Source: Gaeumannomyces sp. JS-464
Taxonomy: Eukaryota; Ascomycota; Sordariomycetes; Magnaporthales; Magnaporthaceae
Length of the DNA stretch: 64,000 nucleotides
NCBI GenBank assembly: GCA_002197995.1
Contig: NGZR01000004.1
Location: forward strand, 124,001 to 188,000
Reading direction: 5' to 3'
Shown here: piece by piece, positions 11,147 to 61,829 of the stretch
How the letters are laid out: each line of letters begins with the position of its first letter
Numbering within the stretch: the stretch's first letter is position 1
Program-made: the position numbers and the translations under genes
The notes under the pieces: model-generated
Databases searched by the model: none
Seen by the model: the letters and a program-made list of their open reading frames with translations, nothing else
What the model was told of the DNA's origin: nothing

Positions 11147-11813
11147 TTACAGGGCAGCAGCAAACACGGCAGCGCGAGCGCCAGGACGCCGCCGGCGTTG
11201 ACGGCCAGGTCGGTGGCGGCGCCGTTGGTCTTGGCAGGATTGGCGGCGGTCGAGGTGGAGGAGCCGGCGGTGGCAGCGCCAGCCGGGGGCGTGGTGGTGG
11301 CGACGGCGGCAGCACCACCGGAGGGAGCCGAGGTCTTGGCGGCGGCGGCGGGCGTCGACGAGGGGAACTGCGAGGCGTAGCCGCAGAAGATCTTCTGCTG
11401 GCCCTGCTGGGTCTCGCGGCGGCTGTCGTTGGGGCACTGGCGGTGTATGAATGCGGTCAGAAAGATGGACTCATGGCGGGAGGTGTGTTGAGAAGAAAGC
11501 CTAGAACTCACGTTGTTGAAGCAGGTCATGATGGCGTGTATGCCGCGCACTTGCAGTTCCAGTCGCCATCAGAGCAGGCGGCGAAACTTGGCGTTTCTCG
11601 GTGGTCAGCACGCTTCCAGCTGTTGAAGAGAAAATTGAGCAAGTTAGTTTTCTGAGCCGCTCCAAGGAGAGGTGATCTGACCAAGAGCGGCAGCCTTGTC
11701 AAAACAAGCTTTCCTCGGCCGGAATCGTGACGTACAATGTAGTCGGCACCAGGCAGAGGACTGGGCAGCGGCCAGCGAGGCCGTGAAGGCGAGGGGGAGC
11801 AGGAAGACTTCAT
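11147..11813 (-). CDS. Short secreted Cys-containing GPI-type wall protein (frame broken)
   Basis: Starts at the ATG at 11813. A signal peptide becomes readable (about LLPLAFTASLAAAQS) only after one base near 11802 is allowed for. The middle has a compact Cys motif, CSDGDWNCKC, then IMTCFNN. An intron follows (11511-11437, GT-AG), then CPNDSRRETQQGQQKIFCGYA. A Ser/Thr/Ala-rich stalk of about 60 residues leads to a hydrophobic C-terminus, GGVLALA, that reads AVFAAAL and stop at 11147 after a second frame step near 11170. A further step lies near 11543, and the joint of the first exons is unclear. This layout is that of small GPI-anchored fungal surface proteins. The frame steps match the indel pattern seen elsewhere in the window. 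The function is unknown. Confidence 0.6.
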
Positions 11814-14150
11814 CTTGTCGATATTTTGTTCGAGGTCGTGCGGGATCGGTGAGCGAACGTGGTGAGACGATGGGCACAGGTGATAACCGGCTGGAAGGTG
11901 CTAGGCTTTCCTGGTATTGAGATATTACACGGCGGTGAAGACGAGGAAGAGCGAGTGACTTTATAGATACACACGAACGAATGGATGTGCTTCGGTGGTG
12001 AAGGCTGGGGAAAGAAGTGGGAAAGAGAGAGAAAGGGGAACAGGGGGAGAAGAGATCCACGGCAGCAAAAAAGGGCCGCGATGGCGGGCTTTTTGGGTAT
12101 AAAAACATAAAAACATTTAAGATATGCAGAGCTAGGCTAGCTCTGGACCAGGGGCACCCCGACTAGGGGATGCCCCCATGCATGAATAGAGACGGGGAAT
12201 TGCCCACTACTTTCGCTACCAGGGTTCGAACGGGACGGTGACGGCCAGAGTCACACCAGCGACTGACCAGCCGGTGCCAGCGAACCAGGTCCTTGCCCGG
12301 ATTTCCCATCGCTGGTCGTCTCCATCCTCTTCGCGGAGCAGGAGGAGCTCGCTGTCCGTCGCAGGCGAGGCCAAGGGGTGGCGCCCAGGGCGTTTGGGCC
12401 GTCACGGACGAGATTAAAACAATTAAACGGCAGGGTGGAGAGGCACGACGGTGGGAAATTTCAATCAGCCAGGACGCGGGCGGGTGGCTCCGATGCGACG
12501 AGGGGGCCTGCGGTGGTGCTCCAGTCTGCGGATTGGCTCGGGGCATTTTAATCCACGGCGGGCTGCTGCACGGCTGCAAGCCATGGATGGGCAATTTCGC
12601 TATCCAGGACCTAGGGCTGCACAACCCGGCATTTTGTTCAACAGCCGGTTGAGCACTCAATTGCTGCAGCTGAAAACCGAGGGCTGGTGTTGGTTCGGTT
12701 GCCGTCCGAGCCTGTAGTGCAGTCAGTCCCCTTTCTTGGGCCAAAACAAGCCCGACATGGTGGAGTCCCATGTCCAACAATCATCGGAGCCGAGTCGCCC
12801 ACCAGCAAATCACCAGGAACAACAGCATGAGGTCGCTGTGCTGCTCGAGACCCTGCCTCCAGGCCGGGAGATTGTCGCCGGGCCGCATACCACCACACCA
12901 AACCACACCACAACACTACAGCGACCCCAGCCACTCACATGCAGCAAACAGCTCACGACCGATGCTACTGCCGGTCTCGGCCCGCCCAGCAGGCCAGCGA
13001 ATCACTGTCGACCGCTGCTGGTGGCCTGGGATGGATGTGTATGCCCGCCAGCCTCAACGCCGTTTTGTTATTTTCTGTCCCCCAAGCTGAAAGCACCGTG
13101 TTGTCGTCATGGCTTCGTGTGGCTGCATGTGCCCGACGTGTTTCTCTCGTTCTGGACAACATCTCCGCTCGTGGCGTGCGACCATGGTCCTCAAGTAGGT
13201 GCTGGCGCAGTAAAAGGCCTGGCTCAGCCGCACCTGCGAGGCCATTACGACCATCAGCCTGGCTGCGTTGTTCAGCTGCGTGCTTGTGTCTAGGCTGGAT
13301 CTATCATTTGCGTTGGGTGTAAGACGTACGACCTATTATTGTGTTCCATCCTTGCTTTCCATCATGGAGACCTCTTTTACCTCTCCCGCTTGACCGGAGA
13401 TAAGCCGGTGAAAGTCCACCGTCGCCGCTGGTCCTACACGTAAACCCTGCCTCCCTCCACCCGGCCCGTCTGGTGCAACGTCTCTTGCGCTTGCACAATC
13501 ACATGTGCAAGGCCATACCTAGTCTCCTTGATAGGAGGCACATCGGTCACGAATCCTTCGAAGCCGGTATTCCGAGGGACGACGCCATCTAGAACGAGAG
13601 TTCATATAATCTATAAGCCAGGAGTTGAAGACGGACGATGAGATGTGAAGTGTGTATCAACCTCAATTGTTTTATGAAATTGAGCACCTAGTTCTTCGGA
13701 TATACCTCAGTGCATACAAAGTCTCCGCTCAGCACGTTTCTAACCCCGACATTGAAGCCCTCCCTAAAAATGAACCATCTAATAAGAGAGAAAGAGAGAC
13801 GCCGAGGACAGAGGGAGAGAAAAAAAAATCACCAAAAACCAAAGACCCCATTTCCAGCCGGTTAGTCATCGAGAGATATGAACCGTGCCATGATGCCTTA
13901 GGTACAGCAGGTAACAATCGCGACTATGACGGCTGATGCGTGCGCTGATAATGATGTCGTTCTGGCATATGCATAACCACCCGCAAGCTCAATGCGCCGC
14001 CTCCAACATAACCCAAGCGAAGGGAAATTGAAAGAGGAAGAAGAGAAGAAAAGCAACCACAAATTAACGCCCCAAGGTATGCTGGCTTGATCAGAATGCT
14101 TCGTGAAAGTACCCTCTTCTTGTACGGTCGTGCCACATATTCATATCCCA
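11814..14150. other. Long intergenic stretch, nothing recognisable
   Basis: About 2.3 kb with many overlapping short frames on both strands but no motif, no consistent splice sites and no family resemblance. The part near 13.5-14.1 kb is likely the 3' flank of the next gene. Decayed repeat sequence is possible. Confidence 0.45.
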
Positions 14151-16024: not shown

Positions 16025-19000
16025 ATGCCTCCTCGCTCTTCGCGAGTGAGCGGCCACAACACCGACGCGTCCATGCCAGACGCCACAGCCAGCAAAGCCC
16101 CTCAGGGCGGCGACTCAATGGTGAGTCTGACAACGTACATGCGTGCCCGGCAATGCCCTGGGTCGCATTCCTCTTGTGCATGCCACGACTTACAAGAGAT
16201 TAGGACGTGGACGAGACCCCTGACATGACCGATTCGGACACGAACCCAAACACCACGGCCAGCAGTGTGATGGGCGATTCGACCGTCGATGGCCGGAAAC
16301 GTCGCTCGGAAGCAAACCAGCTGCGTCGGAGCATCTTGGTCGCAAACATGATCGACTCGGCGAGTCAAAGGTAGGAGCTGCTTTGCGCCCCTCACCAAGG
16401 GGCTACGGCTTCGCGGCCCCGGCGCGTCTACTGCCAATGATGGATCGCGGTACTGACAGCGCACCGCCTCGTATAGGAGGATGATACTCTGCGCAGATTC
16501 AGGTATCTTCTCGGCCTCACAGACCTGTTCCGGCACTTTATCGAGACGAACCCCGACCCCAAGATCCGCGAGATCATGGAGCGAATCGACGCACAGAACG
16601 CCGAGGCGGCCAAGTCAAAAAAGAGCTCAAGTCGCCAGGGCGGCGCTGCTAGCGGCAAGCTCCGCAAGACCGAAGCCGAGGAGGATGCAGAACTTCTTAA
16701 AGACGAGAAGTACGGCGGCTCGGCTGAGACTGTTTTCCGCGAGTCGCCCGCCTTCATCCAAGGAACGATGCGAGACTACCAGATTGCGGGTCTGAACTGG
16801 CTGATCTCGCTGCACGAGAACGGTATTTCTGGCATTTTGGCAGACGAGATGGGCCTTGGCAAAACACTGCAGACTATTTCGTTCCTGGGTTATCTCCGGC
16901 ACATCATGGACATCACCGGCCCGCACCTGGTCATCGTGCCCAAGTCCACGCTCGACAACTGGAAGCGCGAGATTGCCAAGTGGACGCCAGAAGTCAACGT
17001 CCTTGTCCTGCAGGGACCAAGGACGAGCGCGCCGCGCTCATCAACGACCGGCTCGTTGACGAGGATTTCGACGTCTGCATCACCAGTTATGAGATGATTC
17101 TGCGCGAGAAGAGCCATCTCAAGAAGTTCGCCTGGGAGTACATCATCATCGACGAGGCACACCGCATCAAGAATGAAGAGTCGTCGCTGGCACAGGTCAT
17201 CAGGCTTTTCAACTCTCGCAACCGGCTACTTATTACAGGCACGCCGCTCCAGAACAACATCCACGAGCTCTGGGCCCTGCTGAACTTCCTGCTACCCGAT
17301 GTGTTTGGCGACTCTGAGGCCTTTGACCAGTGGTTCTCTGGAGAGGGCAAGGACTCGGACACAGTCGTCCAGCAGCTGCATCGTGTACTGCGCCCCTTCC
17401 TGCTACGGCGTGTCAAGAGTGACGTGGAGAAGAGCCTTCTTCCCAAGAAGGAGGTCAACCTCTACCTCAAGATGTCGGAGATGCAGCGTAACTGGTACCA
17501 GAAGATTCTCGAGAAGGATATTGACGCCGTCAACGGCGCAAACGGGAAACGCGAGTCCAAGACACGACTTTTGAACATTGTCATGCAGCTGCGCAAATGC
17601 TGCAACCACCCCTACCTGTTTGAGGAGCCGAGCCCGGCCCTCCCTATACAACCGACGAGCATCTGGTCTACAACGCCGGCAAGATGGTCATCCTGGACAA
17701 GCTCCTCAAGCGTCTCCAGAGCCAGGGGAGCCGCGTGCTCATTTTCTCGCAGATGAGCAGAGTACTTGACATCCTGGAAGACTACTGCGTTTTCCGCGAG
17801 TACAAGTACTGCCGTATTGATGGAAGCACGGCCCATGAGGATCGTATTGCCGCCATCGACGATTACAACAAGCCAGGGTCGGAGAAGTTCGTCTTCCTGC
17901 TTACGACGAGGGCCGGTGGCCTCGGAATTAACCTCACCACCGCGGACATTGTGATCCTCTACGACAGCGACTGGAATCCCCAGGCCGACCTGCAAGCCAT
18001 GGATCGTGCCCACCGTATCGGACAGACCAAGCAGGTCGTGGTCTACCGCTTCCTCATTGACAACACCATCGAGGAGAAGGTGCTGGAGCGAGCGGCGCAG
18101 AAGCTGCACCTCGACCGTCTGGTTATTCAGCAGGGAAGAGCTCAAGTCGCCGCCAAGGCTGCGGCCAACAAGGACGAGCTGCTGTCCATGATCCAGCACG
18201 GAGCCGAGTCCGTCTTCAACAGGGAAGCTGGCAAGAGCTCCATCACAACCGGCGATGACCTGAACGATGATGATATCGACAAGATGCTTGCCTCGGGCGA
18301 GAGCCGCACGCGCGAGCTCAACGCCCGTTACGAGAAGCTTGGAATCGACGATCTGCAGAAGTTCTCCTCTGAGTCGGCATACGACTGGAACGGCGAAAAC
18401 TTTGCCAAGAAGAAGGATATCGGCGCCACATGGATCAACCCGGCTAAGCGAGAGCGCAAGGAACAGACGTACTCGGTGGACAAGTACTACCGACAGGCCA
18501 TCTATGGACACACGGGAGCGCCCAAGGAGGTCAAGCCCAAGGCTCCTCGCGCTCCCAAGCAGTACCACATCCAGGACTACCAGTTCTTCCCGCCGGAGCT
18601 CCGCGACCTGCAGGATCGCGAGACGGCGTACTACCGTAAGGAGATCGGCTACAAGGTTCCTCTGCCGGATGGCGACGAGTCCACTCTTTCCGAGCGGGAA
18701 GCGGAGCAGGCACTCGACCAGCAAGAGATCGACAATGCCACTCCGCTGACAGAGGAGGAGCAGGAGCGCAAGCAGCAGCTCTCGCAGGAGGGATTCTACG
18801 AGTGGAACAGGAGGGATTTCCAGCAGTTCGTCAACGGTTGCCACAAGTTCGGCCGTCACGACTACGATGGCATTGCTACGAGGTCGGCAGCAAGACGGCG
18901 GCCGAGATCAGGGCGTACTCCAAGGTCTTTTGGCAGCGGTACACGGAGATTGCCGACTACCCCAAAGCCATCAAGACGATTGAGGACGGCGAGGAGAAGC

Positions 19001-19661
19001 TCCGCAAGATCGAGCACCAGCGCAAGATGCTGCGCAAGAAGATGGGCCAGTACCGCGTCCCGCTCCAGCAGCTCAAGATCAACTACTCGGTCTCGACGAC
19101 GAACAAGAAGGTGTACACGGAGGAGGAGGACCGGTTCCTCCTCGTCATGCTCGACAAGCACGGCATCGACTCGGAGGGCATCTTTGAGAAGATACGCGAC
19201 GAGATCCGCGAGAGCCCGCTCTTCCGATTCGACTGGTTCTTCCTGAGCAGGACGTCGACGGAGCTCAGCCGTCGCTGCACCACCCTACTCACCACCATTG
19301 TCAAGGAGTTTGATGACGTCAACACGACCACCAAGGGCGCCAATGGCGTTAACGGCCGCGCGAAGCGTGAGGTCGAGGACGAGGAGAACGACGAGGATAG
19401 TATCCTTGGAATGGCCCCGCCCAAGAAGAAGTCCAAGAACGGAGTCAAGGTATATTCCATCCCAGCCGAGGTTTCCACCATTATGTCCATGGGAACTATT
19501 GCTGACGTGTCTTGCGCAATCTAGAACAAGGCACTCGATAATGTCAAGTCGGGCCCTGCCAGCAAGGCCACCTCGGCGGCGCCGTCCCGCGCGTCAAGCG
19601 TAATTTCCAACACGTCTCCTGCCCCATCCGCCAAGGGCAAGTCGAAGGGCAAAAGAAATGA
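16025..19661 (+). CDS. ISW1: ISWI-family chromatin-remodelling ATPase
   Basis: Nuclear SNF2-type motor that slides nucleosomes. Exons are 16025-16120, 16204-16370, 16477-19449 and 19525-19661. The helicase core carries DEMGLGKT (about 16846), DEAHRIK (about 17152), then [17 protein letters not shown] and [21 protein letters not shown]. The last third has the HAND-SANT-SLIDE part, including [13 protein letters not shown] and [18 protein letters not shown]. The frame breaks at about 16370, 17015, 17625, 18879 and 19654, each by one missing base. With these allowed for, the coding length is 3378 nt (1125 residues), normal for fungal ISW1. As printed, the last exon would run on to a stop at 19710. 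One more A in the AAAA run near 19654 gives a lysine-rich end and TGA at 19659-19661, as expected. Five independent lesions in such a conserved gene point to assembly error. Confidence 0.93.
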
Positions 19662-20399: not shown

Positions 20400-21848
20400 T
20401 CATTGTTGTGCTGCCAGCCTGTTTGCGCGTTCTCTCTCCACCTCGTACATGAAGTCAAAGTAGCCCTTATCAAACATGTGTACGCGGACGTAGCCGTCCT
20501 CACCGCCACTGGCGTAGCCCTTGCCGTTGGGCTCTGCGGCGACGGTGTTCTAGAGCAAGGCATTTTCCAGTTAGCGAACGGGCCAGAGTAGGGAAAAAAA
20601 AAACGGGGGCGTCGAAGGGGGCAGTCTTTCTCACCAAAGGACCGAAGTGACCCCTCACACGGCCAATCTCATCCTCAAAGATCTTGTGGTAAAAGCGAGC
20701 CTCAAACTTGCCCTGGCGCGCCGAGGTGGTGGTGACGTCCATGGCGGCCTGGCCACCTCCCAGGATGACAAAGTCCTTCTTGGGGGTTATGGATGCGCTG
20801 TTCAGAGGGGTGTCTGCAACGTAGGTCTTGAGGACCTCGAGATCCCTGGCTGTCACCAGCTTGGAGGTCTTGTCCTTGGAGGCGGTAATGAAGTAGGTGC
20901 GGTCCTGCGACCACTGCAGGTCGGTGAGCTGCATGCCGAGGTCGTGGATCTGGACCGAGTGGATTTGCTCGCCGGTCTTTTGATTCGGTTGTTAGCTAGT
21001 TCGGCCGTGCTTCTATCAGGTACTGGCTTGTCCGTAATCGCAAACTCACCTTGCCGTCGTACTGCGACACGGAGCCGTCCTCGTGGCCGGCAATGATGTA
21101 CTTGGACATGTAGCTCCACCCGGCGACTGTGGCCTTGCTCTCGTCGCAGACGATGGTCATGGCCCTCTCAGGGTTCTGCTCGGCGTTGACGTCGACCTTG
21201 ATGTCGAGGACGACAATGGTACCCAGATGACCCATGCGCTTCTCGGTGACGCCCAGCAGGCGGGTGCCGTCCTCGTTGAACTCGACGCGCTTGACGGCGG
21301 TGGGGAATTCCCAGGTGGCCAGGCAGCGGCCCGTCTTGACCTCCCACAGCTTGATGGTGTTGTCTGCGGACCCGGTGGCGATGACGGGCTCGTGGGGTCG
21401 ACGTCGACGGTCCAGATGGCGCCGACGTGGCCGTGGTAAGTGCCTAGCCGCTCGCCGTTGTGGGCGTACCAGACGCAGATCTGCTGGTCCTTTGCGACGG
21501 AGAAGATGAGGTCGCCATCGGGGTTGAACCTGTGTTTGCGCAACAGCAGCAACCCCAAGGGTCAGCCGGACGTGTCCATTCGATCCGTTCTGGTCTTGAT
21601 CCACGCTTCACCCTGCATGCGGGGAACTTTTTCTGATATTCGTCGCGAACAACACCCTCCCTATACGCGCTGCCCTATGCGTTTTCTTGCCATTGACCCC
21701 TCCCGCCCTCCTCTTTCTATCCTCCTCTTGACCAGCTCACACGCGCAACAAGCTGTGCAGCGGAAAAACGACGACGTAAGACGGGCAAGGGTCTGTACTT
21801 AATCTGAGTGAGGGCACGCTCGTGGCCCGCCAGGAGAACAGGCCTCAT
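20400..21848 (-). CDS. TIF34: Translation initiation factor eIF3 subunit I
   Basis: WD40-repeat scaffold of the cytoplasmic eIF3 complex, which loads the 43S complex onto mRNA. Exons are 21848-21799, 21529-21050, 20976-20635 and 20549-20400, and all introns are GT-AG. The protein opens [17 protein letters not shown] and continues with [75 protein letters not shown] and [13 protein letters not shown], and ends [10 protein letters not shown]... with stop at 20400. This is the canonical eIF3i order. One base is missing near 21387, where VDVDPTS should run into VIATGSADN. With that base the CDS is 1023 nt (340 residues), the usual family length. The gene is essential in yeast, so the break is probably an assembly error. 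Confidence 0.95.
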
Positions 21849-23182: not shown

Positions 23183-26100
23183 ATGGCGGCGACCAAGATT
23201 GGCGGCACGGCCATTGCTAAGAAGATCCGGGAGCGCCTGCGGTCCGAGATCGAGGAGAAGCAGGCCACAAACCCTCTGTATAAGCCTTGTCTCAAAATCA
23301 TCCAAGGTGGGTGCTTTTCTCTCTTTTTACCTGTACACCTCTCCGTGTTCAGCCAGGCTAACCTTCGTCTATCCCAGTTGGTGATCGATCCGACTCTAGT
23401 AGGTCGCTCCCTTCGGGAATGGCCATCCACTCCGTCTGCCCGCCGAGGATCACGATGAGGCGAGAGCCACTCGATGCCCGCCAGAAGCTGGCGCTCGCTC
23501 TGATCACTAACAATGAATTCCCTCTCGTCTTTGTGTAGCCCTCTATGTTGAAATGAAGCTCAAGGCCGCCCTCGAGGTAACCACGCCTCTTTCACCCTGC
23601 TAGTTGTGTCGGCCCTCCGCTCACCCTGATCTCTAGGTTGGCATACAATGTGAAATATCCCGCTATCCCGAGAACGTCTCGGAGGGAGAGCTTCTCACCA
23701 AGCTATACGACCTTAACAGCGACCCCAAGGTCCATGGCATTCTCGTTCAGCTGCCTCTACCCAAGCACCTTAACGAGAACACCATCACCTCGGCCATTGC
23801 TGACGAGAAGGATGTCGATGGTCTTGGCACCTACAACGTTGGCGAGCTGGCCAAGCGTGGCGGTCACCCATTCTTTGTCCCCTGCACTCCCAAAGGCGTC
23901 ATGGTCCTGCTCCAGGAGACGGGCGTCGATCTCAAGGGCAAGAATGCCGTCGTCGTTGGCCGCAGCGACATTGTCGGCATCCCCGTCAGCCACCTGCTCA
24001 GGAACGCCGATGCCACCGTCACTATCTGCCACTCGAAGACGACCAACCTCCAGGAGCACCTGAAGGCAGCCGACGTCGTCGTTGCCGCCATTGGCCGGCC
24101 ACAGCTCATCAAGGGAGAGTGGCTGAAGCCCGGCGTCATTGTCATCGACGTCGGCACCAACTACATCCCTGATTCCACCAAGCCTTCGGGTCAGCGCCTG
24201 GTTGGCGACGTCGACGCCGAGTCCTCTTCACAGGTCGCTTCCTTCCGCACTCCCGTGCCGGGAGGTGTCGGTCCCATGACCGTGGCCATGCTGCTGCAGA
24301 ATGTCACAGACTCGGCCACCATGTACTTTCAGCGGCAAAAGAATCGTAAGATTGCACCGCTATCTTTGAAGTTGATGGAGCCCGTTCCCTCAGATATTGC
24401 AATCTCCATGGCCCAGGTGCCCAAGCACGTGACTAAGATCGCCAGCGAGGTCGGCATCGCCAGCTCGGAGCTGGAGCCGTACGGGGCGTACAAGGCCAAG
24501 GTCGATCTTAGCCTCCTTAATCGCCTCGAGCACCGCCGCAACGGCCGCTACGTCGTCGTTACTGGCATCACCCCGACGCCGCTGGGCGAGGGCAAGTCCA
24601 CGACCACGATGGGCCTGGCCCAGGCTCTCGGCGCCCACTTGGGGCGTCCGACGTTTGCAAACGTGCGCCAGCCCAGCCAAGGCCCGACCTTTGGCATCAA
24701 GGGCGGAGCTGCCGGCGGTGGCTACAGCCAGGTTATCCCCATGGAGGAGTTTAACCTCCACCTCACAGGCGACATCCATGCTATCACGGCTGCCAACAAT
24801 CTGCTCGCCGCCGCCATTGATACGCGCATTTTCCACGAAAACACACAGAAGGATGCTGCGCTGTATAAGCGCCTGGTGCCTGTGAAGAACGGCAAGAGGG
24901 AGTTCGCGCCTATCATGTTCCGTCGCCTGCAGAAGCTGGGCATCACCAAGACCAACCCGGACGAGCTGACCGAGGAGGAGATAACCCGGTTCGCACGGCT
25001 GGATATCGACCCTGAGACCATCACCTGGAGGCGCGTCCTGGACGTGAACGATCGTCACTTGCGAGGAATTACGATCGGTACCGCGCCGACTGAGCGTGGC
25101 CAGACACGCGCAACGGGCTTTGACATCTCAGTTGCTAGCGGATGCATGGCCATCCTAGCCCTGAGTACGAGCCTTGCCGATATGCGAGATCGTCTGGGTC
25201 GTATGGTTGTTGCTACGTCCCGCAGCGGCGACCCGGTCACCTGCGACGACATTGGCGCCAGCGGAGCCCTGGCCGCCCTGATGCGCGACGCCATCAAGCC
25301 CAACCTTATGCAGACACTTGAGGGCACGCCTGTTTTCGTCCACGCCGGGCCCTTTGCCAACATCAGCATCGGCAACAGCTCCATCCTGGCCGACAAGATG
25401 GCGCTCAAGCTGGTCGGCACTGAGCCCGACGAGGACCACGCGTCCAACACGGGCTTCGCCGTTACCGAGGCCGGTTTCGACTTCACCATGGGTGGTGAGC
25501 GCTTCTTCAACATCAAGTGTCGGGCTTCCGGTCTGGTGCCCGACGTGGTCGTCGTCGTGGCGACCGTCAGGCTCTCAAGTGCACGGGGGCGGTCCACCCA
25601 TCGCCCCTGGCGCGCCGCTGGACCCGGTCTACAAGAAGGAGAACGTCGAGGTACTGCGGGCGGGCTGCACCAACCTGCGAAAGCACATCGCCAACGCGCG
25701 CCGATACGGCGTCCCGGTTGTTGTTGCTATCAACAAGTTCGCGACCGACACAGCCGCCGAGGTGGCCGTTGTGCGCGAGGAGGCTCTCGCGGCGGGCGCC
25801 GTCGACGCCGTGCTCTCCAACCACTGGGCCGAGGGCGGCGCGGCGCAGTCGAGCTCGGCAAAGCTGTCATCGCGGCTAGCGAGCTTCCCAAGCCCGACTT
25901 TGGGTTGCTCTACGGTCTCGAAGGCACGGTGCAGGAGCGCCTCGAGACGATCGCCCGCGAGATGTACGGCGCGGCCGCCGTCGAGCTGTCAGAGCTGGCG
26001 CAGAAGAAGGTCGACACGTACACGAAGCAGGGCTACGGAAACCTGCCTATCTGCGTGGCCAAGACGCAGTACTCGCTCTCGCACGACCCGGACCTCAAGG

Positions 26101-28236: not shown

Positions 28237-28549
28237 GGAGGGGAAATGTACAGATATCAAACTCCCTCGAAGGGAGAATGGGGGTTGGCTGCATGGCGAA
28301 ACCGAATGGGAAAGGATCGACGATCGGAATCGGGCGATCTTTTGATATTATTGGGTTTTACGGAGATCCCATCCCAGGAGAAAGCGGCAATCTGGGTGAG
28401 GTTTGTGCACCAAAAGCGTCCAACGTAGCTTTGGCTGATATGAATCGGAAAGGCCGGATGGGAAACTTCATGTCGTTCAACATGGCGCGGTCGCCGCTAC
28501 ACAACAGAGAGCAAGGGAGGGCTACACGAGCCAAGAAACCCCTCGGTAG
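28237..28549. other. Convergent intergenic region
   Basis: 3' flanks of the secreted-protein gene and the deaminase gene. Nothing else is seen. Confidence 0.5.
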
Positions 28550-29098: not shown

Positions 29099-29429
29099 GT
29101 TTGTTTTGAGGCTGTGATGTGTTCCTGATGAGTGGCCGAGATCGCTTTCAATCTTTGGTCGATATGATGAGCGCATATGAGATTGACCGCCGTAAGAATT
29201 ACCCCACAGCGCATCCCTCCACTGCAGGCCCCACTACCCCGTCTCGGCCACTGAACCACAGGGGGCAGTAGGGGGCTCTGAATTTCGTCACAGCACCCAA
29301 TTGGAACATGAAGCCATTAAACTCAAGTCGCAGGACGCGTCCGACGCGTCGTCCACCAAGCCCATCAGGACCACCACTCCTGCCATCGGCACTTCCACCA
29401 CAACAACAAACTCAACCGCAGCGAACACC
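29099..29429. promoter_or_regulatory. Shared promoter of deaminase and DnaJ genes
   Basis: 331 bp between two divergent start codons. The frame upstream of the DnaJ ATG at 29430 is open back to 29301 but is Ser/Thr-rich and precedes the family's normal start, so I treat it as leader. No clear TATA box was picked out. Confidence 0.5.
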
Positions 29430-30398
29430 ATGGCGGACTCCTCTGACGAGCTCGAGGTCGGCGAGCCGCCCGTGATCGACCCGTACGAGGAGCTCGGGCT
29501 CGAACGATCGGCCACGGCCGACCAGGTCAAGGCGGCCTACCGGAAAGCGGCGCTTAAGCATCACCCGGACAAGGTGGCCGCCGACAAGAAGGCCGAGGCG
29601 CACGAGAAGTTCCAGTCCATCGCCTTCGCGTACGCGATCCTGTCGGACCCGGCGCGGCGCAAGCGCTACGACGAGACGGGCTCGACGTCCGAGTCCATCG
29701 TCGACTCGGACGGCTTCAGCTGGTCCGACTACTTCGCCGAGCAGTTCCGCGACGCCGTCTCGTCCGACGCCATCGAGATGTTCGCGAGCGCGTACAGGCG
29801 CTCGGACGAGGAGACGGCCGACCTGCTGGCCGCCTACGAGGAGGGCGAGGGCGACATGGAGCACGTCTACGAGGTCGTCATGCTCAGCAGCGTGCTCGAG
29901 GACGACGAGCGGTTCCGCGCCACCATCGACGCCGCCATCGCCGCCGGCACCGTCGCCAGGTACGACGCCTACGCCAAGGAGACCAAGGCGTCGAGGCGCG
30001 CGCGCGCCAAGAGGGCGAGCAGGGAGCAGGAGGAGGCCGAGGACTACGCCAAGGAGCTCGGCGTCCACGACAAGCTGTTTGGGAGCGGCAGCAGCAGCGG
30101 CAACAAGGCGGCAGGCGGCAAGGGAAAAGCGGGCAAGGGCAAGGGCAAGGGCAAGTCGGGCGAGGCGGACGAGAGCGCCCTGGCCGCCCTCATCATGAAG
30201 CGCCAGGCCGACCGCGGCTCCGACTTCCTGGACCGCCTGGCCGAGAAGTACGGCGCCCAGCCCAAGCGCGGCAAGAAGCGCGGCAGCGCCGACATGGACG
30301 AGCCCCCTGAGGAGGCCTTCCAGGCAACCGCCGCCCGCAAGGAGAAGAAGCAGACCGCAGCTCCCAAGGCGAGCAGATCCAAGAGGGCCAAGCGTTGA
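29430..30398 (+). CDS. DnaJ co-chaperone, DNAJC9-like
   Basis: Intact single exon, 322 residues, starting MADSSDELEVGEPP. The J domain covers residues 17-85 and includes the HPD tripeptide (45-47) that stimulates Hsp70, in KHHPDKVAADKK, and the end SDPARRKRYDETG. After it comes the DNAJC9-type segment (SWSDYFAEQF, then IEMFASAYRRSDEETADLL), followed by a coiled, charged region and a Lys/Gly-rich basic tail ending KASRSKRAKR. DNAJC9 relatives are nuclear histone chaperone partners that recruit Hsp70 to H3-H4. The basic tail fits a nuclear location. A start at 29301 would add 43 Ser/Thr-rich residues and is less likely. Confidence 0.88.
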   Translation: MADSSDELEVGEPPVIDPYEELGLERSATADQVKAAYRKAALKHHPDKVAADKKAEAHEKFQSIAFAYAILSDPARRKRYDETGSTSESIVDSDGFSWSDYFAEQFRDAVSSDAIEMFASAYRRSDEETADLLAAYEEGEGDMEHVYEVVMLSSVLEDDERFRATIDAAIAAGTVARYDAYAKETKASRRARAKRASREQEEAEDYAKELGVHDKLFGSGSSSGNKAAGGKGKAGKGKGKGKSGEADESALAALIMKRQADRGSDFLDRLAEKYGAQPKRGKKRGSADMDEPPEEAFQATAARKEKKQTAAPKASRSKRAKR

Positions 30399-32764: not shown

Positions 32765-33773
32765 ATGGCAAGTACTCCAGCGCATGAGATCTACCCCAGT
32801 ACTGCTTCCACAAATCCCCCACCATAACCGCATGGTGCCGCCTGCGCAACTCGGACATCGCGAAGCTCTGGAGCCCCCCGGCTTTGAGGGCCAGGATGTG
32901 TTTTTCTACAATAACCATCCCATCAAGTGGGTGCGCATAGCCGGCGTCGTCGTCGCCGTCGATGAATACACGGTCGACGAGTCCTCAGTCAGGCGCGTCT
33001 ACACGATCGACGACAGTAGCGGCATAAATGTTGAGTGTGTCGCACAGCTGGCGGCCAAGCAGCCGCAGCAGCTAGCTCTCGACGCTCCCTCGACGGATTT
33101 TGTTGCGCAACGGCCGCAGAAGCAGCAGCGGGAGCAGCAGGAGCAGCAGAACGACCCCCTCGACCTCGACGTTGGCCAGGTCGTAGACATCCGGGGCGGC
33201 CTCAAATTGTACCGCACGAGATATGACGCCCGGCTGCAGATCAAGATCGAGAAGGTCAAGCCCCTCCTGTCTACGCAGCAGGAAGTCGACTTCTGGAAGG
33301 AGACGGCGAAGCTTCACGAGGAGACGCTGAGCCGTCCGTGGGTTCTGGAGGAGCGGGTGCTGCGCCGCTGCCGGCGCAAGGCCGAGGAGGACGAATTTCG
33401 GGCCAAGAAGAAGAAGAAAACGGAAAAGGCCAGTGACCATGTCCCCAAAGTTTCTTCGACCCGCGAGGGTGTCGAGAAGGCTTCTGGAAGCAAAGGTGAT
33501 GATGGTATTCGTCGCATTCACAAACCCGCTGTCCCAGTTGCCGATAGGGGCGTCCCGCGGCTCATCAAAGGCCTAGAGAGGAAGCGGGACGTCAAGCACG
33601 CTTCTAGCAGCAGCTCGGGCGATGGCATGTATCACAAGCATAACAACCTCGTTGTCGTCCCGGCCGCCAACAGCGCGGTTCCCAAGCTTCTCACAGGCCT
33701 GGAGAAGAAACAGCGGCACCCGAAAGCGGAACATGCGACGAATCGAGAAGGGCGTTCCATGTCGCGTGCTTGA
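32765..33773 (+). CDS. STN1: Telomere capping CST subunit Stn1
   Basis: Single-stranded telomere DNA-binding protein of the CST complex, nuclear. The open frame from about 32760 holds the OB-fold signature GFEGQDVFFYNNHPIKWVRI, then GVVVAVDEY, then VYTIDDSSGINVEC. Further on come VVDIRGGLKLYRTRYD and the end of the OB fold, VDFWKETAKLHEETLSRPW. A Lys-rich disordered tail with two similar PRLIKGLERK/PKLLTGLEKK repeats follows. The correct N-terminus is in other frames: ATG at 32765 reads MASTPAHEIYP, then (one base missing near 32797) YCFHKSP and WCRLRNSDIAKL, then (one more near 32870) PPGFEGQDV. These blocks are typical of fungal Stn1. No separate wH domain is recognised in the tail. Confidence 0.85.
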
Positions 33774-35235: not shown

Positions 35236-38200
35236 ATGCTGTGGCACATCGGGCTAATTTTGCTGCAGGCAGCTAGCTGTTCGGCTGAACCGGCTCTCAA
35301 CCACCGGGGCCACCACCGACATCAGCACGCGGCGCGAGGCACTCCTCCTGAATACACAAGCCCCGACCCGGTCGACGTGCTCTCAAGCACAGCTCCTTCG
35401 GCACAACCCCTAGAAACAGCTTTACCGGCTCATATTACAACCCCCGGCGAGAGCACTAAGAGCAGCTCTCTTGACACCTCCTTGCCGACATCTACCGTCC
35501 CCGTGATAACGAGGCTCGTCGAGGCCGGAATCGAGCAGATTGCGCTTAATCCCACCCCTGGGCCTCCGCTTGGAGCGTCTGGTACTATCATCACCACCCT
35601 GAACACCACCGGCCAGGCCACACAGCCTCGCCTCCTGCCCCCGTGCTAACAGCAGAATCCACCATGGTCTTCTCATTCTTGAACCATTCCTCAAAGCAAC
35701 CCGCGAATCGGGTTGAATCTGGACCTGAGCCAGAGTCTGGACCCCCTGAGAGCGAGCCTGACCTCGAATCCCTATCCCTTGACTCTGAGTCCCAGTTTGA
35801 AGACGCCGAATCCGAACCTGGGTTTAGCCCTGTGATGGCCTTCACTGCTGAAAGGATGGCATCGTCAAACATCTTCGCCCAACCCATCTCTGGGGGTGCG
35901 GCGCCACCGGCCTTTTTCAAGCGACGCCAGGATCATCCAGTGCCACGAACTGGCATTGCGTCACCAACTCCGCTTGCCACCAACAAGTTCTACAGCAACC
36001 TTTACCTAGGAGGCCTAAGGAGCCCAGCCTAATCTTCACCCTTACGCTGTTCACTGGGTCAAGGGACAAGGAGTGTCCAAGAGCTGGGGCTTGTCCATCT
36101 CGCATGTTGAAGCCTCCCAGAGGGTATTTGGGCCTAAGGAGCCCACGACGGGGGCCTCACGGTTCTTCATCAACCCCATATACATCGAGTCTCTCATCCT
36201 CTCGGCCACCAACCTGGGCGGAACAACTGCCCTGACAATGGCACAGATGACGGCATTCAGCGCCATGGCAGAGCTGCGGCCTAACAGCCGGGCGCTGCCC
36301 TCGGTCCGGATCCCTCTGGTGCAGGGCTCCGCCTTCATCACCGGAGTATATCAGGGCGCTATCCCCGTGATAGGCACTGGCGTTCACTTCAGGACCATTA
36401 CTCGTGCTCTAAAGGCGCCAAAGCCTGGGGTCGTCAAGTTCAAGATCGTCCTCGAGAACGGCGCCACGTGGCTGTTGTACGCCAGAAACACGGCTGGCTC
36501 CCCCCTGGACCTCCAGATTCGCGACAGTAAGATGGCGGTATCGAGGAACGCTTTCCACGGCACTATACAGATCGCGAAAGACCCCGGCCGTAGAGAGGCC
36601 ATCTACGACCAAGCCTGTGGCGCCTATGCCACCTCCACCGAGCTGTCGGGGACAGTTACGGGCACGGTGGGGTCATATACGCTCACGTTCAAGAAGCAGG
36701 GCCTGACCTCTTCGCCACTGCTCATGTTCGCACTACCGCACATGGTCGCTTCGTTCAGCAGCGCGACGGCACGGGAAGTTACCTCGCTGCGGCTCCAAAC
36801 GACAACAAAGGGGATCGCGACAGGCGTGCTGGGTGACTCGTGGACTATGGAAGAGAAGAATCTACCCACCAACATGGGCTTCCTTCCATGGCTTCCTGGC
36901 AAGGGCACTCTCACCATTTCTTCTAAGGCCAAGGCAGCGATCCTCCCAATCGCTCGAAGTGAGATCGCTCAGGACATGTCGGCACAGTCAAACCTCGACT
37001 CCATGTACTTCAGTGGGAAGGTGAGAGCTCCCTTCCTCTGTCAACCTAACCCCAGCACCCAAAAGAGGTGTCGGGTGGCTAACGCACAAGGGGCACTCTT
37101 GTTTGGCAGGCACTCGCCAAGTTCGCCACGATATTGGTCGCCGTCAACGACATGCTGGGTGACAAACAGCTTGCTCAGACCGGGCTTAGGAAGCTCAAGG
37201 ACGCGTATGAGCGGTTTGCCGAGAACAAGCAAAAATTTCCACTCTTCTACGAGTCGGCATGGGGCGGCGTTGTTTCGTCGGCCTCGTACGTGACAGGTAA
37301 CGCGGGTATGGACTTCGGCAACACGTACTACAACGACCACCACTTCCACTATGGCTACTTTGTCTACACGGCGGCCGTTATCGCCAAGCTTGACAAGGCC
37401 TGGGGCGCTAAGAACCGTGACTTTGTCAACACGCTGGTGCGTGACTACGCGAATCCGAGCCCGAGAGATAAGTTCTTCCCGGTCTATCGCAACTTCGACT
37501 GGTTCCACGGCCACAGCTGGGCCCACGGTCTTTACGATACGCTGGACGGAAATGTGAGTGACAGCCCCATCGCAGGCGTGGACGGGCAATTTGGATGATG
37601 ATGACCCAGGGACGAGGACGGCTTTGCTGATAGCTCATACTCGCGCGCTTCTAGGACCAAGAATCCAGCTCCGAGGATGCCATGTCTGCGTACGCCATCA
37701 AGATGTGGGGATGGGCGATAGGCGACCGTAACATGGAGGCGAGGTAAGTCTGCCTACGTCATCTGTGGCAGTGTCACTTTGGGCAATGGCCCGCTGACGA
37801 TTGATTGCTTGTTTGGGGCAACAGAGGCAACCTGCAGCTGGCGACTCTTGCGCGGTCGTTGAGGTACTACTACCTGTACACGAGCGACAACAATGTGCAG
37901 CCGGCCAACTTCATCGGCAACAAGGTGGCGGGATCCTGTTTGAGAACAAGATCGACCACACGACCTTCTTTGGGAACAACATCGAGTACATACAGGGCAT
38001 CCACATGATCCCGCTCCTGCCGTTCTCGCCGCTCTGCCGGAGCAATAAGTTTGTGGACGAGGAGTGGCAGGCGTACTTTAGCAAAGGCCGCATCGACTCG
38101 GTGCCTGGCGGCTGGAGGGGCATATTGATAGGAAACCTGGCCCACATCGACGCTAAGAGGGCATTTGGGTTCTTTTCGGCGAACAGCTTCGATGCTGGGC

Positions 38201-42198: not shown

Positions 42199-42221
42199 CC
42201 CCCCCCCCCCCCCCCCCCCCC
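42199..42221. repeat. Homopolymer run of 23 C
   Basis: Uninterrupted C run about 370 bp before the exchanger start codon. The length is uncertain, as for any long homopolymer. Confidence 0.8.
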
Positions 42222-45837: not shown

Positions 45838-48816
45838 TTACCGGGCCATGGGCTTCGCCATGGGCGCAATGATGCCCTGCTTCATGAGGATCCTGGGCTT
45901 AGTGGCGTCCTGGAAGGTCTGCTTGGTCGTCCACTCGGGCCCGACGGGAAGGCGGAGCGAACGTTCGTACTGGTCCTTGTTCTCGAAGACGTGCGGCAGC
46001 TGAGCGGCGAGGTACTTGTCGTTCTGAGTTTTGTTTTCGGAGTGTTAGTGGGCAAAAAGGAAGGAGGCAGAAAGAAGAGCGATAAGACAGAAGAAAAAAA
46101 AAAAAAAAAAAAAAAAGGGAAAAAGAATGGCAAAAATGGGTTACCTTTCTGACGCGCTTCTCGCTGATAATGACGCGCTCGAGCTTGGCGTCCTTGCGGT
46201 CCTTCTTCTTGACGCCCTCAATCTTGGTCAGGAACTTGCCGTGGCTCTTCTTCTTCTGGCGGTTGCTGACGCCCTCGCCGCCCCAGCTGCCCCAGCCGGG
46301 GAGCGTGTTGTCTACCACCTTGTCGTCGTCCTCGGACTCGACCGCCGCCTTCTCGCGCTCGAAGGAGCCGACAACGTCGTCGCCCGCGAACGCGCGGTCC
46401 GCCAGCTCCCTGTCGCGGATCTGGAGCGGCAGGTGCACGTCGGCGTCATCGTCCTCGGATCCGGACTCGCCGCCGGCCGGGACCGTGGTGCCGTTGGTCT
46501 TGCTGCCACTGCCGCCGCCAGCCTGGGAATCCCCTGCGCGTGGGGGTGGCGGCTTTCTGGCGGCCTTTTCGGACGCCTTTGCCGTACCCGAGACGAGGCT
46601 GTTGGAGAGGTCGATAGTGGCGTCATCCTTGCTGGCCCCTGACCCCTTTTTGCCCTTGGTAGATCCTCCTTCCGCCTTCCGAGCTCCAGGCCTGGACCAG
46701 CTTCCAGCAATGCCTGGGACAGCCTCGGCAGCCTCGGCGGCCTGAGAGGTGAAAGATGATGTTGCTGCCCCTGACCTGGAGGTGTCAGTCTTTTTCAGTG
46801 CCGATGTCAACGCCCGTAGAGTGCCTGCCTCAGGGGCGCTGGTCTTGGTTTTTGGCTTCTTAGCATCGGGCACGCCGTAGGTCCTGCGCCCCACCTCCCC
46901 GACCTCTTCTTCCTCGTCATCGTTGCCATCCTCCTCGTCCGAGTTTAGTTCCCGGCGGATCTGGGCGACGAGGGCGTCGTTGGCCTGCTTGCGCACGGCC
47001 TCGGCGCGCTGCATGAACTTCATCTTCATCAGGTTCGACTGGGACTCATCCTGCCCGGCCTCAGCCAGCTCCAGCTCCCGCAGGAGTCTTCTGCGCTCGC
47101 TCCGTTCGTCTTCGGATCCGCTCGCAGCCTCGGAGCCGCTGTCGCCGTCGTCGTCGTCGTTGTCGTTACCGCCAGCTCGCCCACCGACGGCCTTGCCCTC
47201 GACACGCCTGCGCAACTCCTCGTCGCGGCGGGCCATCTCGGTCAGGCCCGCGCGGACGCCCTCGTCCCAGGCGGCGAGGCCGGCCCTCTTGGCCGATTTC
47301 GCCCACTTGCTGTCGCGGTGCTTTGCGCCCACGCGCTCGAGCGCGCGCTGCCGGTGCTGTGCCTCGCGCTCCTCCTCCGAGTCGGCGGCACCGCCCTCCT
47401 CGTCCATCTCGGCCTCGAGCTTCTGGCGCTCCCGGCGGTGGACACGGCGGTATGCCTTGCTCTTGATCTTTTTGATACGAGCCGCGCGCGCCTGCTCGCG
47501 TGACTTTTCCTCCCGCTCCCGGCGCCGCTGGGCCCAGATCTCCTGCATCTCCTCGCGCGACACCCCCGGCTCGCCGCCCGAGCCAGCCTCTCCTTCCTTT
47601 GGCTTAGAGCTGGGGCTGAGGCCGCTCTCCTCCATGATAGACATGATTGTTTGCTCCAGCTCGTTTCCGGCGCTCTTGCGGTCCAGAGGTGCCAGCTCGC
47701 CCTTGTCGAGGCCGGCATCGTGTAGGGTGTCTGGGAGCGGGAAGACGAGATGCTCGGCGCGACGGTTGTGTTTGACCGTGTCCTGCCACCTGTCCAGCGT
47801 CTTGTTGGCCTTTTCTGCAGCGGCGGTCCGCAGGAGCTTGTCCTGCTGCCGCCTTGCCAGCGGCACGTCTAGCTTCTGCGAGGTGCCAGGCTTAGCTGCC
47901 GCCTTCTCCTCCTTGTTCATAAGCTTCAGCGATTTTTTGATATTCGCATCTTTGACGCCGAACAGCGCCAGATCCTTCAGCTCAACCTTTGTCTTGGTGT
48001 TGGCCACAGGTGTATCCTGGTCGTCGCCGTTGCCCGCAAACCCGGCAGCGAGGCTTTGTAGTGCGTCCAGCTTGGATGGGTCGTCATCTTCCACGTCGTC
48101 ATCATCTGATAATGAGGACTCGGGCTGGAATCTTCGTCGTCCTCCGATCCCGACTCTGTGTCGCCCGCGGAGCCTTCGTCATCGTCATCGTCGTCGGAAA
48201 CCTGGTCCAATGCCTGCGCCAAGTCTATTGCGTCCTCCCCCAGCGATGACCCGTCATCATCGTCATCCTTCTCGTCCCCCTCTTCCTCATCGCCGTCGCT
48301 GTCCCCCGCCTTGCGATTCTTTTTCTTGGCTTGTCTTTTGTTGGAACTGCTGCCCCTGAACGCGAAACCGTCGAACTTGTCCTCGTCACTCTCCCCGAAC
48401 GCCTCGTCGCTGTCAAGCTCCGAATCGTCGTCTTCGCCGACCCCTATGCGCCACTCGTTACCGTCGCTATCGCTGCCAAATTCGTCGTCGTCATCGTCGT
48501 CATCGTCGTCCCCGCCGTTCCTTGCCCGTTTGTTCCTCGGGCGGGGATCCTCCTCGTCGTCATCGCCGTCGTCTTCGTCCTCATCCTCCCCGTCGCCTCC
48601 GCCGCGCGGCCGTTTTCTCTGATTGGGCTCAAAGTCCAGGTCGCGGGCCCGGGTGCCTCTGATCCCGGACTTATTCGGGAGGTCTTTGGCGGCGAGGGCA
48701 AAGGCGTCGAGCGCCGCGGCCCGGGAACCGGCCTTGCCCTTCTGGGGCCGTTTTCCGCTGCCTTTGCCTTTGGCCTGGCCCAGGAGCGGGCGGCCATGTG
48801 ACTGTCGGCCGGGCAT
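45838..48816 (-). CDS. UTP14: U3 snoRNP / SSU processome protein Utp14
   Basis: Nucleolar factor for 18S rRNA processing that activates the helicase Dhr1. Exon 1 is 48816-46145 and exon 2 is 46023-45838. The start is MPGRQSHGRPLLGQAKGKG, followed by long acidic tracts. Family blocks include PLARRQQDKLLRTAA, KANKTLDRWQDTVKHNRRAEHL, KIKSKAYRRVHRRER and LPGWGSWGGEGV, and across the intron VIISEKRVRK|NDKYLAAQLPHVFENKDQYERSL, split here only to show the joint. It ends with PEWTTKQTF and a short MAKPMAR. One base is missing near 48123 inside the acidic tract. Allowing for it the CDS is 2859 nt (952 residues). The intron has a 23-T polypyrimidine run. The gene is divergent from MRPL27. Confidence 0.93.
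46094..46116. repeat. A23 run inside the UTP14 intron
   Basis: On the coding strand this is a T23 tract between donor and acceptor, forming an extreme polypyrimidine tract. Confidence 0.8.
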
Positions 48817-56792: not shown

Positions 56793-58090
56793 ATGGACGA
56801 CGACGACGACTTCGGGGCCGACGCCGACTTTATACAGGCGCTGGCCGCCGCGTCGCCTGAGGTCAGCGTTCCATCGCGTGCCCGACAGCCCGCGGCGCAG
56901 GCGATCCAGCAGCCCACACCCCAGCGCATTCAACAACCAACGCCCCAGCGCATCCAGCAGCCCACGCCCCAGCGGGTAGAAAGGGGAGCAGTCCGGGAAG
57001 CTGGATCCTCATCGGGTGGCGGTTCCTCCTCTGCAGCAGGCCCCGCCGCGGCACCGGGCAAGATCGTGCAGCCCACTCCACAGGCGTTGCCGACTCGAGG
57101 ATCCGGGTCGGCCATCCTCGTGTCGCCGCGCCAGAAGAACAACCCGGTGCTGAGCTGGGTCAAATCTATCCCGTGGGAGTACAGCGACATCCCCGCCGAC
57201 TACGGCCTGGGGCTCACGACGTGCGCCCTGTTCCTGAGGTACGTTTGTGGCCATGCGCATCCATTGTGCAAGTCACTCGGCGGCTAATGCTCTGCGGCCC
57301 TCGCCGCCGCCATCAGCCTCAAGTACCACCGGCTCCACCCGAGTACATCACACGCGCATCCGGAACCTGCAGGGCAAGTACACGCTCCGGGTCCTGCTCA
57401 CGATGGTGGACGTGCCGAGCCACGAGGACGCGCTCCGGGAGCTGTCCAAGACGTCGCTGGTCAACAACGTGACGCTGGTGCTGTGCTGGTCGGCGCAGGA
57501 GGCGGCGCGCTATCTGGAGCTGTACAAGTCGTACGAGCACGCAAACTTCTCGGCCATCCGCGCCGCCCAGGCCACGGGCTACGCCGAGCGCCTCGTCGAG
57601 TTCGTCACGGTCCCCCGCGCCATCAACAAGGCCGACGCCGTCGCGCTCGTCAGCACCTTTGGCAGCCTCCGCAACGCCGTCAACGCCGACCCGGAGCAGG
57701 TCGCGTCCGTCGGCGGGTGGGGGGAGAGGAAGGTCAAGAGCTGGTGCAAGGTCGTCGAGCAGCCCTTTCGCGTCAGGAAGGCTGGCGCCGCCGCCGCCAG
57801 AAAGCGCGGGACGACGGCCACGCCGCTGCGCGAGGCTGCCGGTGGCACGCAACGTGCGGGGAAAGCGGCAGCGCAAACGCAGATCTGGAACCCCAACATC
57901 GCCGACGAGTACGATGAAGATGCGGCGCTGCAGGCTGCTCTTGCCGAGTCCAGTAGGATGGCCGGAGGCTGGGCAGGGTGCCGGCGCTGGTAGCAGCAAC
58001 GAAACCGGTGCCAGGCAGCCAGCGCCGGAGAAAGAACAGCTTAGCGAGGGCATTGCTGCCGCGCTGGCAAAGCTGCGCGAGAACAGCTAA
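56793..58090 (+). CDS. RAD10: ERCC1/Rad10 DNA repair nuclease subunit
   Basis: Non-catalytic partner of XPF/Rad1 in the structure-specific endonuclease used for nucleotide excision and interstrand crosslink repair. Exon 1 is 56793-57238 and exon 2 begins at 57317. The N-terminus has an imperfect repeat, IQQPTPQR three times. The central ERCC1 domain reads ILVSPRQKNNPVL, DYGLGLTTCALFL, SLKYHRLHP, RIRNLQGKYTLRVLLTMVD and NNVTLVLCWSAQEAARYLE. The tandem helix-hairpin-helix part follows (YAERLVEFVTVPRAINK, then FGSLRNAVNADPEQV). Bases are missing near 57341 and 57350, where HPEYIYTRIRN is expected. A third frame change near 57965-57985 precedes a C-terminal LSEGIAAALAKLRENS with stop at 58090. 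Without it the frame ends at 57993. Confidence 0.9.
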
Positions 58091-59974: not shown

Positions 59975-61829
59975 ATGCGCTGCATGCGGCCCGCGCACAT
60001 AGCGTCCCTCCTGCTGGGGTTCGCTTCATCGGGCGTCCTGGCGTCGCCGGCGCCGGTGCGGAGGGGCGTCACCTACCAGCCGAACCCGGAGAGGGCGGCC
60101 GCGGTCAAGGCGGCGTTCCGCCGGAGCTGGGACGGCTATTACAAATATGCCTTCCCCCACGACAGCCTCAAGCCGATCTCGAGGTCGTTTGACGACGATC
60201 GGTAGGTGGTTTTGGGCTCTGTCTTGGTGTCTTGCCATCCCGGTACTGACTACTGGCATGTGCAGCAATGGCTGGGGTGCCAGCGCCATCGACGCGCTCA
60301 GCACGGGGCTGTTGATGTCTGAGGACGACATCGTCCAGCAGATACTGGACTTTGTCCCCACCATCAACTTTGATACCACCAAGACGGAGGTCAGCCTCTT
60401 CGAGACAACCATCCGCTACCTCGGCGGGCTCGTATCAGGTAAGACGGCTGTGGCAAACACCTGGACTCAGGGGGAGAGATGAAGTCAATCGTGGCTTCTA
60501 TGTCCACCAGAGAGGATTAGGAGGGAGAAATGCAGATACTGACAATTTCCGGCAGCCTACGATCTCCTGACAGACCCGTCGGGCAAGTACAAGCCCGCAA
60601 ACGCCAGCGCGGCCAAGGCGGTCCTGGCGCAGGCAGAGCGACTTGCGACGAACCTCAAGTTCGCCTTCGGCACGCCCAGCGGCGTGCCCGACAACTCAAT
60701 CTTCCTGGACCCGCCGCGGCTGTCGGGCAGCCAGACCAACGGCATCGCCACCATCGGCACGCTGGTGCTCGAGTGGACGCGTCTCAGCGACCAGACGGGC
60801 AATCCGGTCTTTGGCGCCCTTGCCCAAAAGGCCGAGTCGTACCTGCTTGACCCCAAGCCCGCCCTGGGCGAGCCGTTCCCGGGCCTGATCGGGCTTGATG
60901 TTAACCTCACCACAGGCCTGTTTATCGACGGCCGCGGAGGCTGGGGTGGTGGAAGCGACAGCTTCTACGAGTACCTCATCAAGATGTACTTGTACGACCC
61001 GGAGCGTTTTTCCGGCTACAGAGACCGCTGGATCCTCGCCGCCGACTCGAGCATCAAGTATTTGGCGTCACACCCGTCCACGCGGCCCGACCTGACCTTC
61101 CTGGCCTTTTATCGGAACACGACCCCGCGCTACATCTCACAGCACCGTATGTAACGGGATCTTTTTTTTTGTGCAACTGATCACGAACGGCAGGTTTCGA
61201 ATAAATGAACCTAGCTAACCTCCTATTCACCCATCACAGTGGCCTGCTTCGCCGGCGGAAACTTCACTTGGCGGCCTGACCCTCAGCCAGAAAAAGTACG
61301 TCGACTTCGGCCTCGAGCTAACCCACGCCTGCCGCGAGACGTACGTGCAGACCGCGACGGGCATCGGGCCCGAGGTCTTCCGGTGGCAGGTCGCGGGCGA
61401 GACGACGACCGGCAACCCGGCGCCGCCCGCCAACCTGAAGACCTTCTACGAGCGCTCCGGCTTCTGGATCCCGCCCGAGGACGGCGGCGCGGCCAGCTAC
61501 CAGCTGCGGCCCGAGGTGATCGAGTCGTACTACTACGCCTACCGCGCCACGGGCGACCCCAAATACCAGGAGTGGGCCTGGCAGGCTTTCCTGGCCATCA
61601 ACACCACCTGCGCCCAGGGGGTGGGGTACACGGCGCTGGGCAACGTCAACGCGCCGGGAGGGGCACGCCGCAGGACACGCAGGAGAGCTTCTGGTTCGCC
61701 GAGACGCTCAAGTACTCGTACCTCATCCACGCCGAGGACGCGCCGTGGCAGCTCAAGCCCGACAGGACCAACGGCTGGGTTTACAACACCGAGGCGCACC
61801 CTGTCAGGGTTGCTGGGCGCCCGGGTTAA
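59975..61829 (+). CDS. Alpha-1,2-mannosidase, GH47, secreted type
   Basis: Trims Man9 N-glycans. Exons are 59975-60201, 60266-60438, 60556-61146 and 61240-61829. The start MRCMRPAHIASLLLGFASSG is a signal peptide. The N-terminal PNPERAAAVKAAFRRSWDGYYKYAF and NGWGASAIDALSTGLLM are characteristic. Catalytic-region motifs follow: GGWGGGSDSFYEYLIKMY with the acidic E, RPEVIESYYYAYRATGDPKY, and a terminal TEAHP near 61800. Conserved cysteines are seen in ACFAGGNF and LTHACRETY. There is no Golgi membrane anchor, so it resembles the secreted 1B class of fungi. Frame steps are needed at about 61268 (two bases) and 61661 (one base, G run). The corrected CDS is 1584 nt, 527 residues, normal for the family. 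Confidence 0.93.

What the first reader, a model, noticed from the sequence alone, without database searches (positions are those of the whole stretch)
11147..61829. Recurrent one-base frame breaks in conserved genes: probably uncorrected assembly indels
I see about two dozen single-base steps, nearly all missing bases, in genes that should be intact. They include ISW1 (16370, 17015, 17625, 18879, 19654), eIF3i (21387), ADE3 (25570, 25579, 25842), STN1 (32797, 32870), GH81 (35641, 36016, 37932), UTP14 (48123), RAD10 (57341, 57350) and GH47 (61268, 61661). Allowing for them, whole-codon lengths typical of each family result. Essential genes such as eIF3i and UTP14 cannot all be dead, so the source is most likely the sequence. 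Any gene count or pseudogene call from this window needs this in mind.
Basis: partly seen in the sequence, partly recalled or inferred. Interest (0 to 1): 0.75.

Follow-up and report, generated by a model that had tools for sequence, protein, structure and literature searches.

The report
Sequencing indels mimicking broken fungal genes
The broken reading frames in this stretch of a fungal genome are almost certainly small base-count mistakes left in the assembly, not dead genes or new biology; they matter because they make healthy genes look broken.

Summary
The window lies in a 53-Mb, 34-contig fungal assembly whose proteins are closest to Gaeumannomyces and Magnaporthiopsis. 16370 is an intron donor, with the real break 33 bases upstream. 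19654 and 32870 have weak support; 32797 and 35641 have none. In net terms there are 11 firm frame changes, 9 of them one base short. Utp14 and eIF3i are single copy. The breaks are not special to the window: 18 gap-free frame changes lie elsewhere, on six contigs, in CCT, HSP70, SNF2, tRNA-synthetase, RNA-polymerase and kinase genes. A coding-frame HMM gives 0.97 missing bases per coding kb in the window and 0.87 in 20 other samples of the contig. Best explanation: residual, deletion-biased indels of an under-polished, probably long-read, assembly. This is a known kind of artefact of low biological interest; reads and platform could not be checked.

The parts
16330..16345 (+).
   Evidence: Alignment to P0241, break at 16337, intron 16371-16476
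17007..17022 (+). ISW1-type gene, SNF2 domain: frame break, one base short
   Evidence: Overlapping SNF2 matches in two frames, profile 1-88 then 84-290
17618..17630 (+). ISW1-type gene: frame break, one base short
   Evidence: the two frames match chain 5jxr_A 188-399 and 392-723
18872..18884 (+). ISW1-type gene: frame break, one base short
   Evidence: HAND in one frame, SLIDE in the next; HMM 0.99 at 18877
19650..19660 (+). ISW1-type gene, last codons: probable break just before the stop (weak)
   Evidence: Alignment ends at residue 1124 of 1125 at 19656; relative's ending lies in another frame
21380..21392 (-). eIF3i: frame break, one base short
   Evidence: EIF3I profile 15-64 and 66-182 in two frames with 2 bases between; HMM 0.99 at 21391
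25565..25620 (+). C1-THF synthase (ADE3): net frame change, one extra or two short
   Evidence: 25578; FTHFS profile switches frame
25836..25860 (+). C1-THF synthase: frame break back, one base short
   Evidence: 25841; HMM 0.97 at 25858
32790..32875 (+). STN1: two proposed breaks, not settled
   Evidence: Only one Stn1 profile stretch; HMM supports one near 32869
36016..36034 (+). GH81 N-terminal domain: frame change, one extra or two short
   Evidence: Profile 1-31 and 35-322 in two frames, 10 bases apart
37925..37935 (+). GH81 C-terminal domain: frame break, one base short
   Evidence: Profile 212-249 and 249-349 in overlapping frames; HMM 0.99 at 37925
48118..48130 (-). UTP14: frame break, one base short
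   Evidence: tblastn frames abut; (48125); HMM 0.98
57335..57352 (+). RAD10: net frame change after a 78-base intron, one extra or two short (less secure; an alternative 70-base intron would join the frames)
   Evidence: Rad10 profile 2-45 and 56-115 in two frames; intron candidates
61250..61275 (+). GH47: net frame change after a 93-base intron, one extra or two short (less secure; an alternative 64-base intron would join the frames)
   Evidence: GH47 profile 89-268 and 291-411 in two frames; intron candidates
61656..61665 (+). GH47: frame break, one base short
   Evidence: Profile 291-411 and 410-455 in two abutting frames; HMM 0.98 at 61657

Best explanation
The frame breaks are residual single-base (sometimes two-base) length errors of an under-polished, probably long-read, assembly, at roughly one per kilobase of coding sequence and mostly one base too few. 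Shown: the breaks are in the printed sequence; relatives' proteins run through them; similar breaks lie in essential genes on other contigs; the window's estimated rate is like that of the rest of its contig. Inferred: that the living genome lacks them, and that the platform was long-read (34 contigs for 53 Mb, one of 15.65 Mb).
For: 7 breaks in 9,312 aligned nt of three genes against relatives (one further call dropped) versus 0 in 34,941 nt of controls. 18 gap-free frame changes outside the window in seven families, 13 of them one short; nine read in DNA in CCT subunits, an HSP70 and an RNA polymerase second-largest subunit. HMM: 0.97 missing bases per coding kb in the window, 0.87 in 20 samples of the contig; simulated intact genes refit to 0.00. 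Single copy: Utp14 and eIF3i. The published error profile of long-read assemblies fits: most errors indels, most of those false deletions, falsely broken genes (passages of PMC12007338).
Against: No reads or second assembly were available. Long-run context is absent and short-run enrichment is weak: mean longest run 2.9 versus 2.6, reached by 3% of draws; two other run measures by 24% and 8%. MCM genes show 0 breaks in 4.0 kb, so not every gene is hit. The HMM gives 0.13-0.14 false deletions per kb on intact simulated genes when the genome's parameters are held.
Confidence: 0.96

Rival explanations
1. The breaks are real pseudogenising mutations in this segment, for example a redundant or decaying copy of a region that is intact elsewhere, or indels of a strain with a repair defect.
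For: The frames are broken as printed.
Against: Utp14 and the 1.6-kb eIF3i region have no second copy. Breaks also hit CCT, HSP70 and RNA polymerase genes elsewhere, which cannot all be dead (established yeast genetics, recalled). Protein identity to relatives remains 90-97% outside the breaks, so the genes are not decaying.
Confidence: 0.015
2. Part of the listed breaks are unrecognised introns.
For: True for one listed position: 16370 is the donor of a 106-base intron. It stays open for RAD10 and GH47 at 61268, where an alternative intron of fitting length exists.
Against: At the 11 firm breaks the two frames abut, overlap or lie at most about 10 bases apart, or were scored with introns allowed, so there is no room for an intron.
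Confidence: 0.02
3. The organism reads through the breaks by ribosomal frameshifting or transcript repair.
For: Would reconcile broken frames with essential genes without invoking sequence error.
Against: Breaks occur in both directions (13 one short, 5 one extra or two short, outside the window). Relatives' proteins run through the same places from uninterrupted gene models. The 21 contexts printed look unalike by eye; no motif statistic was run.
Confidence: 0.005

Closest known systems
Residual indel errors of long-read assemblies (profiled in Kastor, PMC12007338, passages read; homopolymer-length errors in the start of the Polypolish abstract, PMC8812927, listing only)
   Same: Frame breaks in genes that should be intact, indels dominated by false deletions, genome-wide
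   Different: Published profiles tie deletions strongly to runs of two to eight bases; here the run association is weak in the residual sequence. Those papers treat bacterial genomes; this is a fungus.
Apparent frameshifts from collapsed haplotypes (Trypanosoma brucei, PMC8445201, title and start of abstract seen in the listing)
   Same: Frame breaks created by assembly and not by biology
   Different: That case needs two alleles; no second copy of Utp14 or eIF3i was found here, though ploidy was not tested

Membership tests
Residual long-read assembly indels | Frame breaks in essential, conserved genes that relatives carry intact | tested here: met
Residual long-read assembly indels | Spread over the assembly, not local | tested here: met
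   18 gap-free frame changes on six contigs outside the window; similar rate along C29
Residual long-read assembly indels | Bias to missing bases | tested here: met
   9 of 11 firm net changes in the window one short; 13 of 18 elsewhere
Residual long-read assembly indels | Association with equal-base runs | tested here: inconclusive
   Weak: 3%, 24% and 8% of 5,000 random draws reach the three observed run measures
Residual long-read assembly indels | Absent from accurate reads of the same strain | not testable with these tools
   No reads held
Pseudogene segment | An intact functional copy elsewhere | tested here: not met
   Utp14 and eIF3i only; other genes not tested
Programmed frameshifting | One direction of shift at all sites | tested here: not met
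   Both directions
Programmed frameshifting | Break conserved in relatives | tested here: not met
   Three genes only: ISW1-type, C1-THF synthase, UTP14

The most novel reading that the evidence does not exclude
The breaks are real and the fungus expresses a large share of its essential genes through frameshifting or transcript repair, a decoding habit unknown in fungi. Without reads or transcripts this is not formally excluded.
Probability: 0.005. Interest if true: 0.95.

Novelty: not a real feature. Interest (0 to 1): 0.1.

Why it matters
It matters for users of this assembly. At about 0.9 missing bases per coding kb, a 2-kb coding sequence carries almost two on average, so gene models, pseudogene counts and lost-gene claims will often be wrong. 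Any finding from this window that rests on a broken frame should be discounted until the assembly is polished.

Tried and rejected
Rejected: the aligner's break at 23540 in the C1-THF synthase gene; tblastn with other relatives shows a mini-exon and introns there, so I dropped it as an intron-edge artefact. I first doubted 37932, because one profile match seemed to run through it; separate pieces showed a true break. Intron explanations were examined for RAD10 and GH47 and remain possible there.

Led nowhere: Rfam on the window and eight samples (144 kb) and ARAGORN in bacterial mode on the window and 20 samples found no RNA gene, so no non-coding test was possible. The rRNA request to the genome search did not complete. 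Two paper searches (two papers listed each, none opened) did not identify the assembly. Structure searches for eIF3i and GH47 added little beyond Pfam.

Full report
What the window is. It is C29:124001-188000 of a 53.0-Mb genome in 34 contigs; the longest contig seen is 15.65 Mb. Its UTP14 is 80-81% identical to Magnaporthiopsis poae and Gaeumannomyces proteins and 56-59% to named Pyricularia ones. Its C1-THF synthase is 86% identical to G. tritici. It is therefore most likely a fungus of the Magnaporthaceae outside Pyricularia; the species is not identified.

Testing against relatives. I wrote a frame-aware protein-to-DNA aligner that allows GT-AG introns and short or long codon steps. Against one relative's protein each, it gives four breaks in ISW1 (about 16337, 17018, 17623, 18879; each one base short), two in C1-THF synthase (a net 'one extra or two short' at about 25578, one short at about 25841) and one in UTP14 (48125, one short). 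A further call at 23540 was dropped as an intron-edge artefact (compare). The 7 kept breaks lie in 9,312 aligned nt, at 90-97% protein identity. On twelve control pairs the aligner made 0 false breaks in 34,941 nt, and it found 24 of 24 planted deletions, within nine bases.

Testing with profiles. Pfam matches that continue in another frame with no or almost no gap confirm breaks in the SNF2 domain of ISW1 and in eIF3i (eIF3i), in GH81 at 36016 and 37932, and in GH47 at 61661. That makes 11 firm net changes, 9 of them one base short. Two more, in RAD10 (57341/57350) and GH47 (61268), are less secure: an intron lies beside each, the frames do not join with the intron I prefer (78 and 93 bases), but another GT-AG pair at each place (70 and 64 bases) would join them. 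My preference rests on motifs recalled, not on a call.

16370 is the edge of a normal 106-base intron; the break it reflects is 33 bases upstream. 35641 lies upstream of the likely GH81 start codon and has no support. 32797 has none beyond my reading of the frames, and 32870 only the HMM. 19654 is plausible from the displaced ending. 11147 was not verified. The HMM alone has a shift within 25 bases of 12 of the 19 positions, one of the 12 being the intron edge at 16370, and none near the other seven.

Is it special to this window? No. The 1.6-kb eIF3i region matches only itself in the genome, and Utp14 has one locus, so for these two genes there is no second copy. I searched the genome with seven families and counted adjacent matches whose profile positions continue, whose gap is under 40 bases and whose frames differ: 19 cases in 132.5 kb of matched sequence. 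Of these, 18 lie outside the window, on C1 (4), C12 (2), C23 (8), C29 (2), C30 (1) and C32 (1); 13 of the 18 are one short (from the tables). It is a lower bound, since both sides must be detected and the kinase table was cut (123 of 243 candidates scored). By family the 19 are CCT 7 in 13.4 kb, HSP70 2 in 12.1, SNF2 5 in 25.3 (one of them the window's own), tRNA synthetases 1 in 6.4, RNA polymerase 1 in 3.4, kinases 3 in 67.9, MCM 0 in 4.0. Nine of the 18 were read in the DNA, in CCT subunits, an HSP70 and an RNA polymerase second-largest subunit: in eight the two frames abut or overlap, in one they lie 19 bases apart.

Rate inside and outside. A seven-state coding-frame HMM, started from the window's own coding pieces of three genes and fitted to the window and twenty 10-kb samples of C29, gives 28.3 expected missing bases in 29.3 kb of coding sequence for the window (0.97 per kb) and 66.7 in 76.9 kb for the samples (0.87 per kb) (sums of the rows). 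Fitting was stopped at seven rounds; the deletion estimate had nearly settled, the insertion estimate was still rising. On simulated intact genes the refit is 0.00 per kb, but with the genome's parameters held it is 0.13-0.14; planted rates near 0.5 and 1.0 per kb are recovered. The simulation is drawn from the same model, so it tests the fitting and not the model's realism.

Sequence context. Around 21 break places (13 in the window, two of them the less secure ones, and 8 of the 9 read elsewhere) the longest equal-base run within eight bases averages 2.9, against 2.6 at random coding positions; 3% of 5,000 draws reach that, and 24% and 8% reach two other run measures. The association with runs is weak in what remains of them. 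That would be expected if short runs lost one base, but it does not prove it.

Mechanism. The simplest account is an under-polished assembly, probably from noisy long reads, whose consensus drops, and less often adds, single bases. Passages of the Kastor paper (PMC12007338) describe the pattern: indels are 69% of errors passing thresholds in one assembly, most are false deletions, deletions go with runs of two to eight bases, and genes are falsely broken. The platform is inferred. A living cell with eIF3i, UTP14, CCT subunits and an RNA polymerase subunit broken as printed is not credible on established yeast genetics (recalled). Genome-wide frameshift decoding would need shifts in both directions, absent from the relatives compared; I give it about half a percent.

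Verdict. It is a useful warning about this assembly, not a biological discovery.

Noticed in passing
window 10283-10312 (30 G), 42199-42221 (23 C), 46094-46116 (23 A, in the UTP14 intron); L014 7438-7534 (59 C, one G, 37 C); L023 2044-2082 (39 G); L022 6762-6794 (33 T): Very long equal-base runs. The run-length spectrum is two-humped: in the C29 samples G/C runs number 283, 57, 5, 2, 1 at lengths 5 to 9, none at 10-14, and 6 at 15 or more. Real tracts or over-called runs cannot be told apart here.
   Followed up: partly
   Followed up: no
window 29196-30395 (+): An intact 400-codon frame with DnaJ and DNAJC9 HTH domains, an example of a gene without an evident break.
   Followed up: no
window 8418-8533: Three tandem copies of a 39-base unit; the first 16 kb of the window holds little coding sequence by the HMM (2.9 kb).
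   Followed up: no
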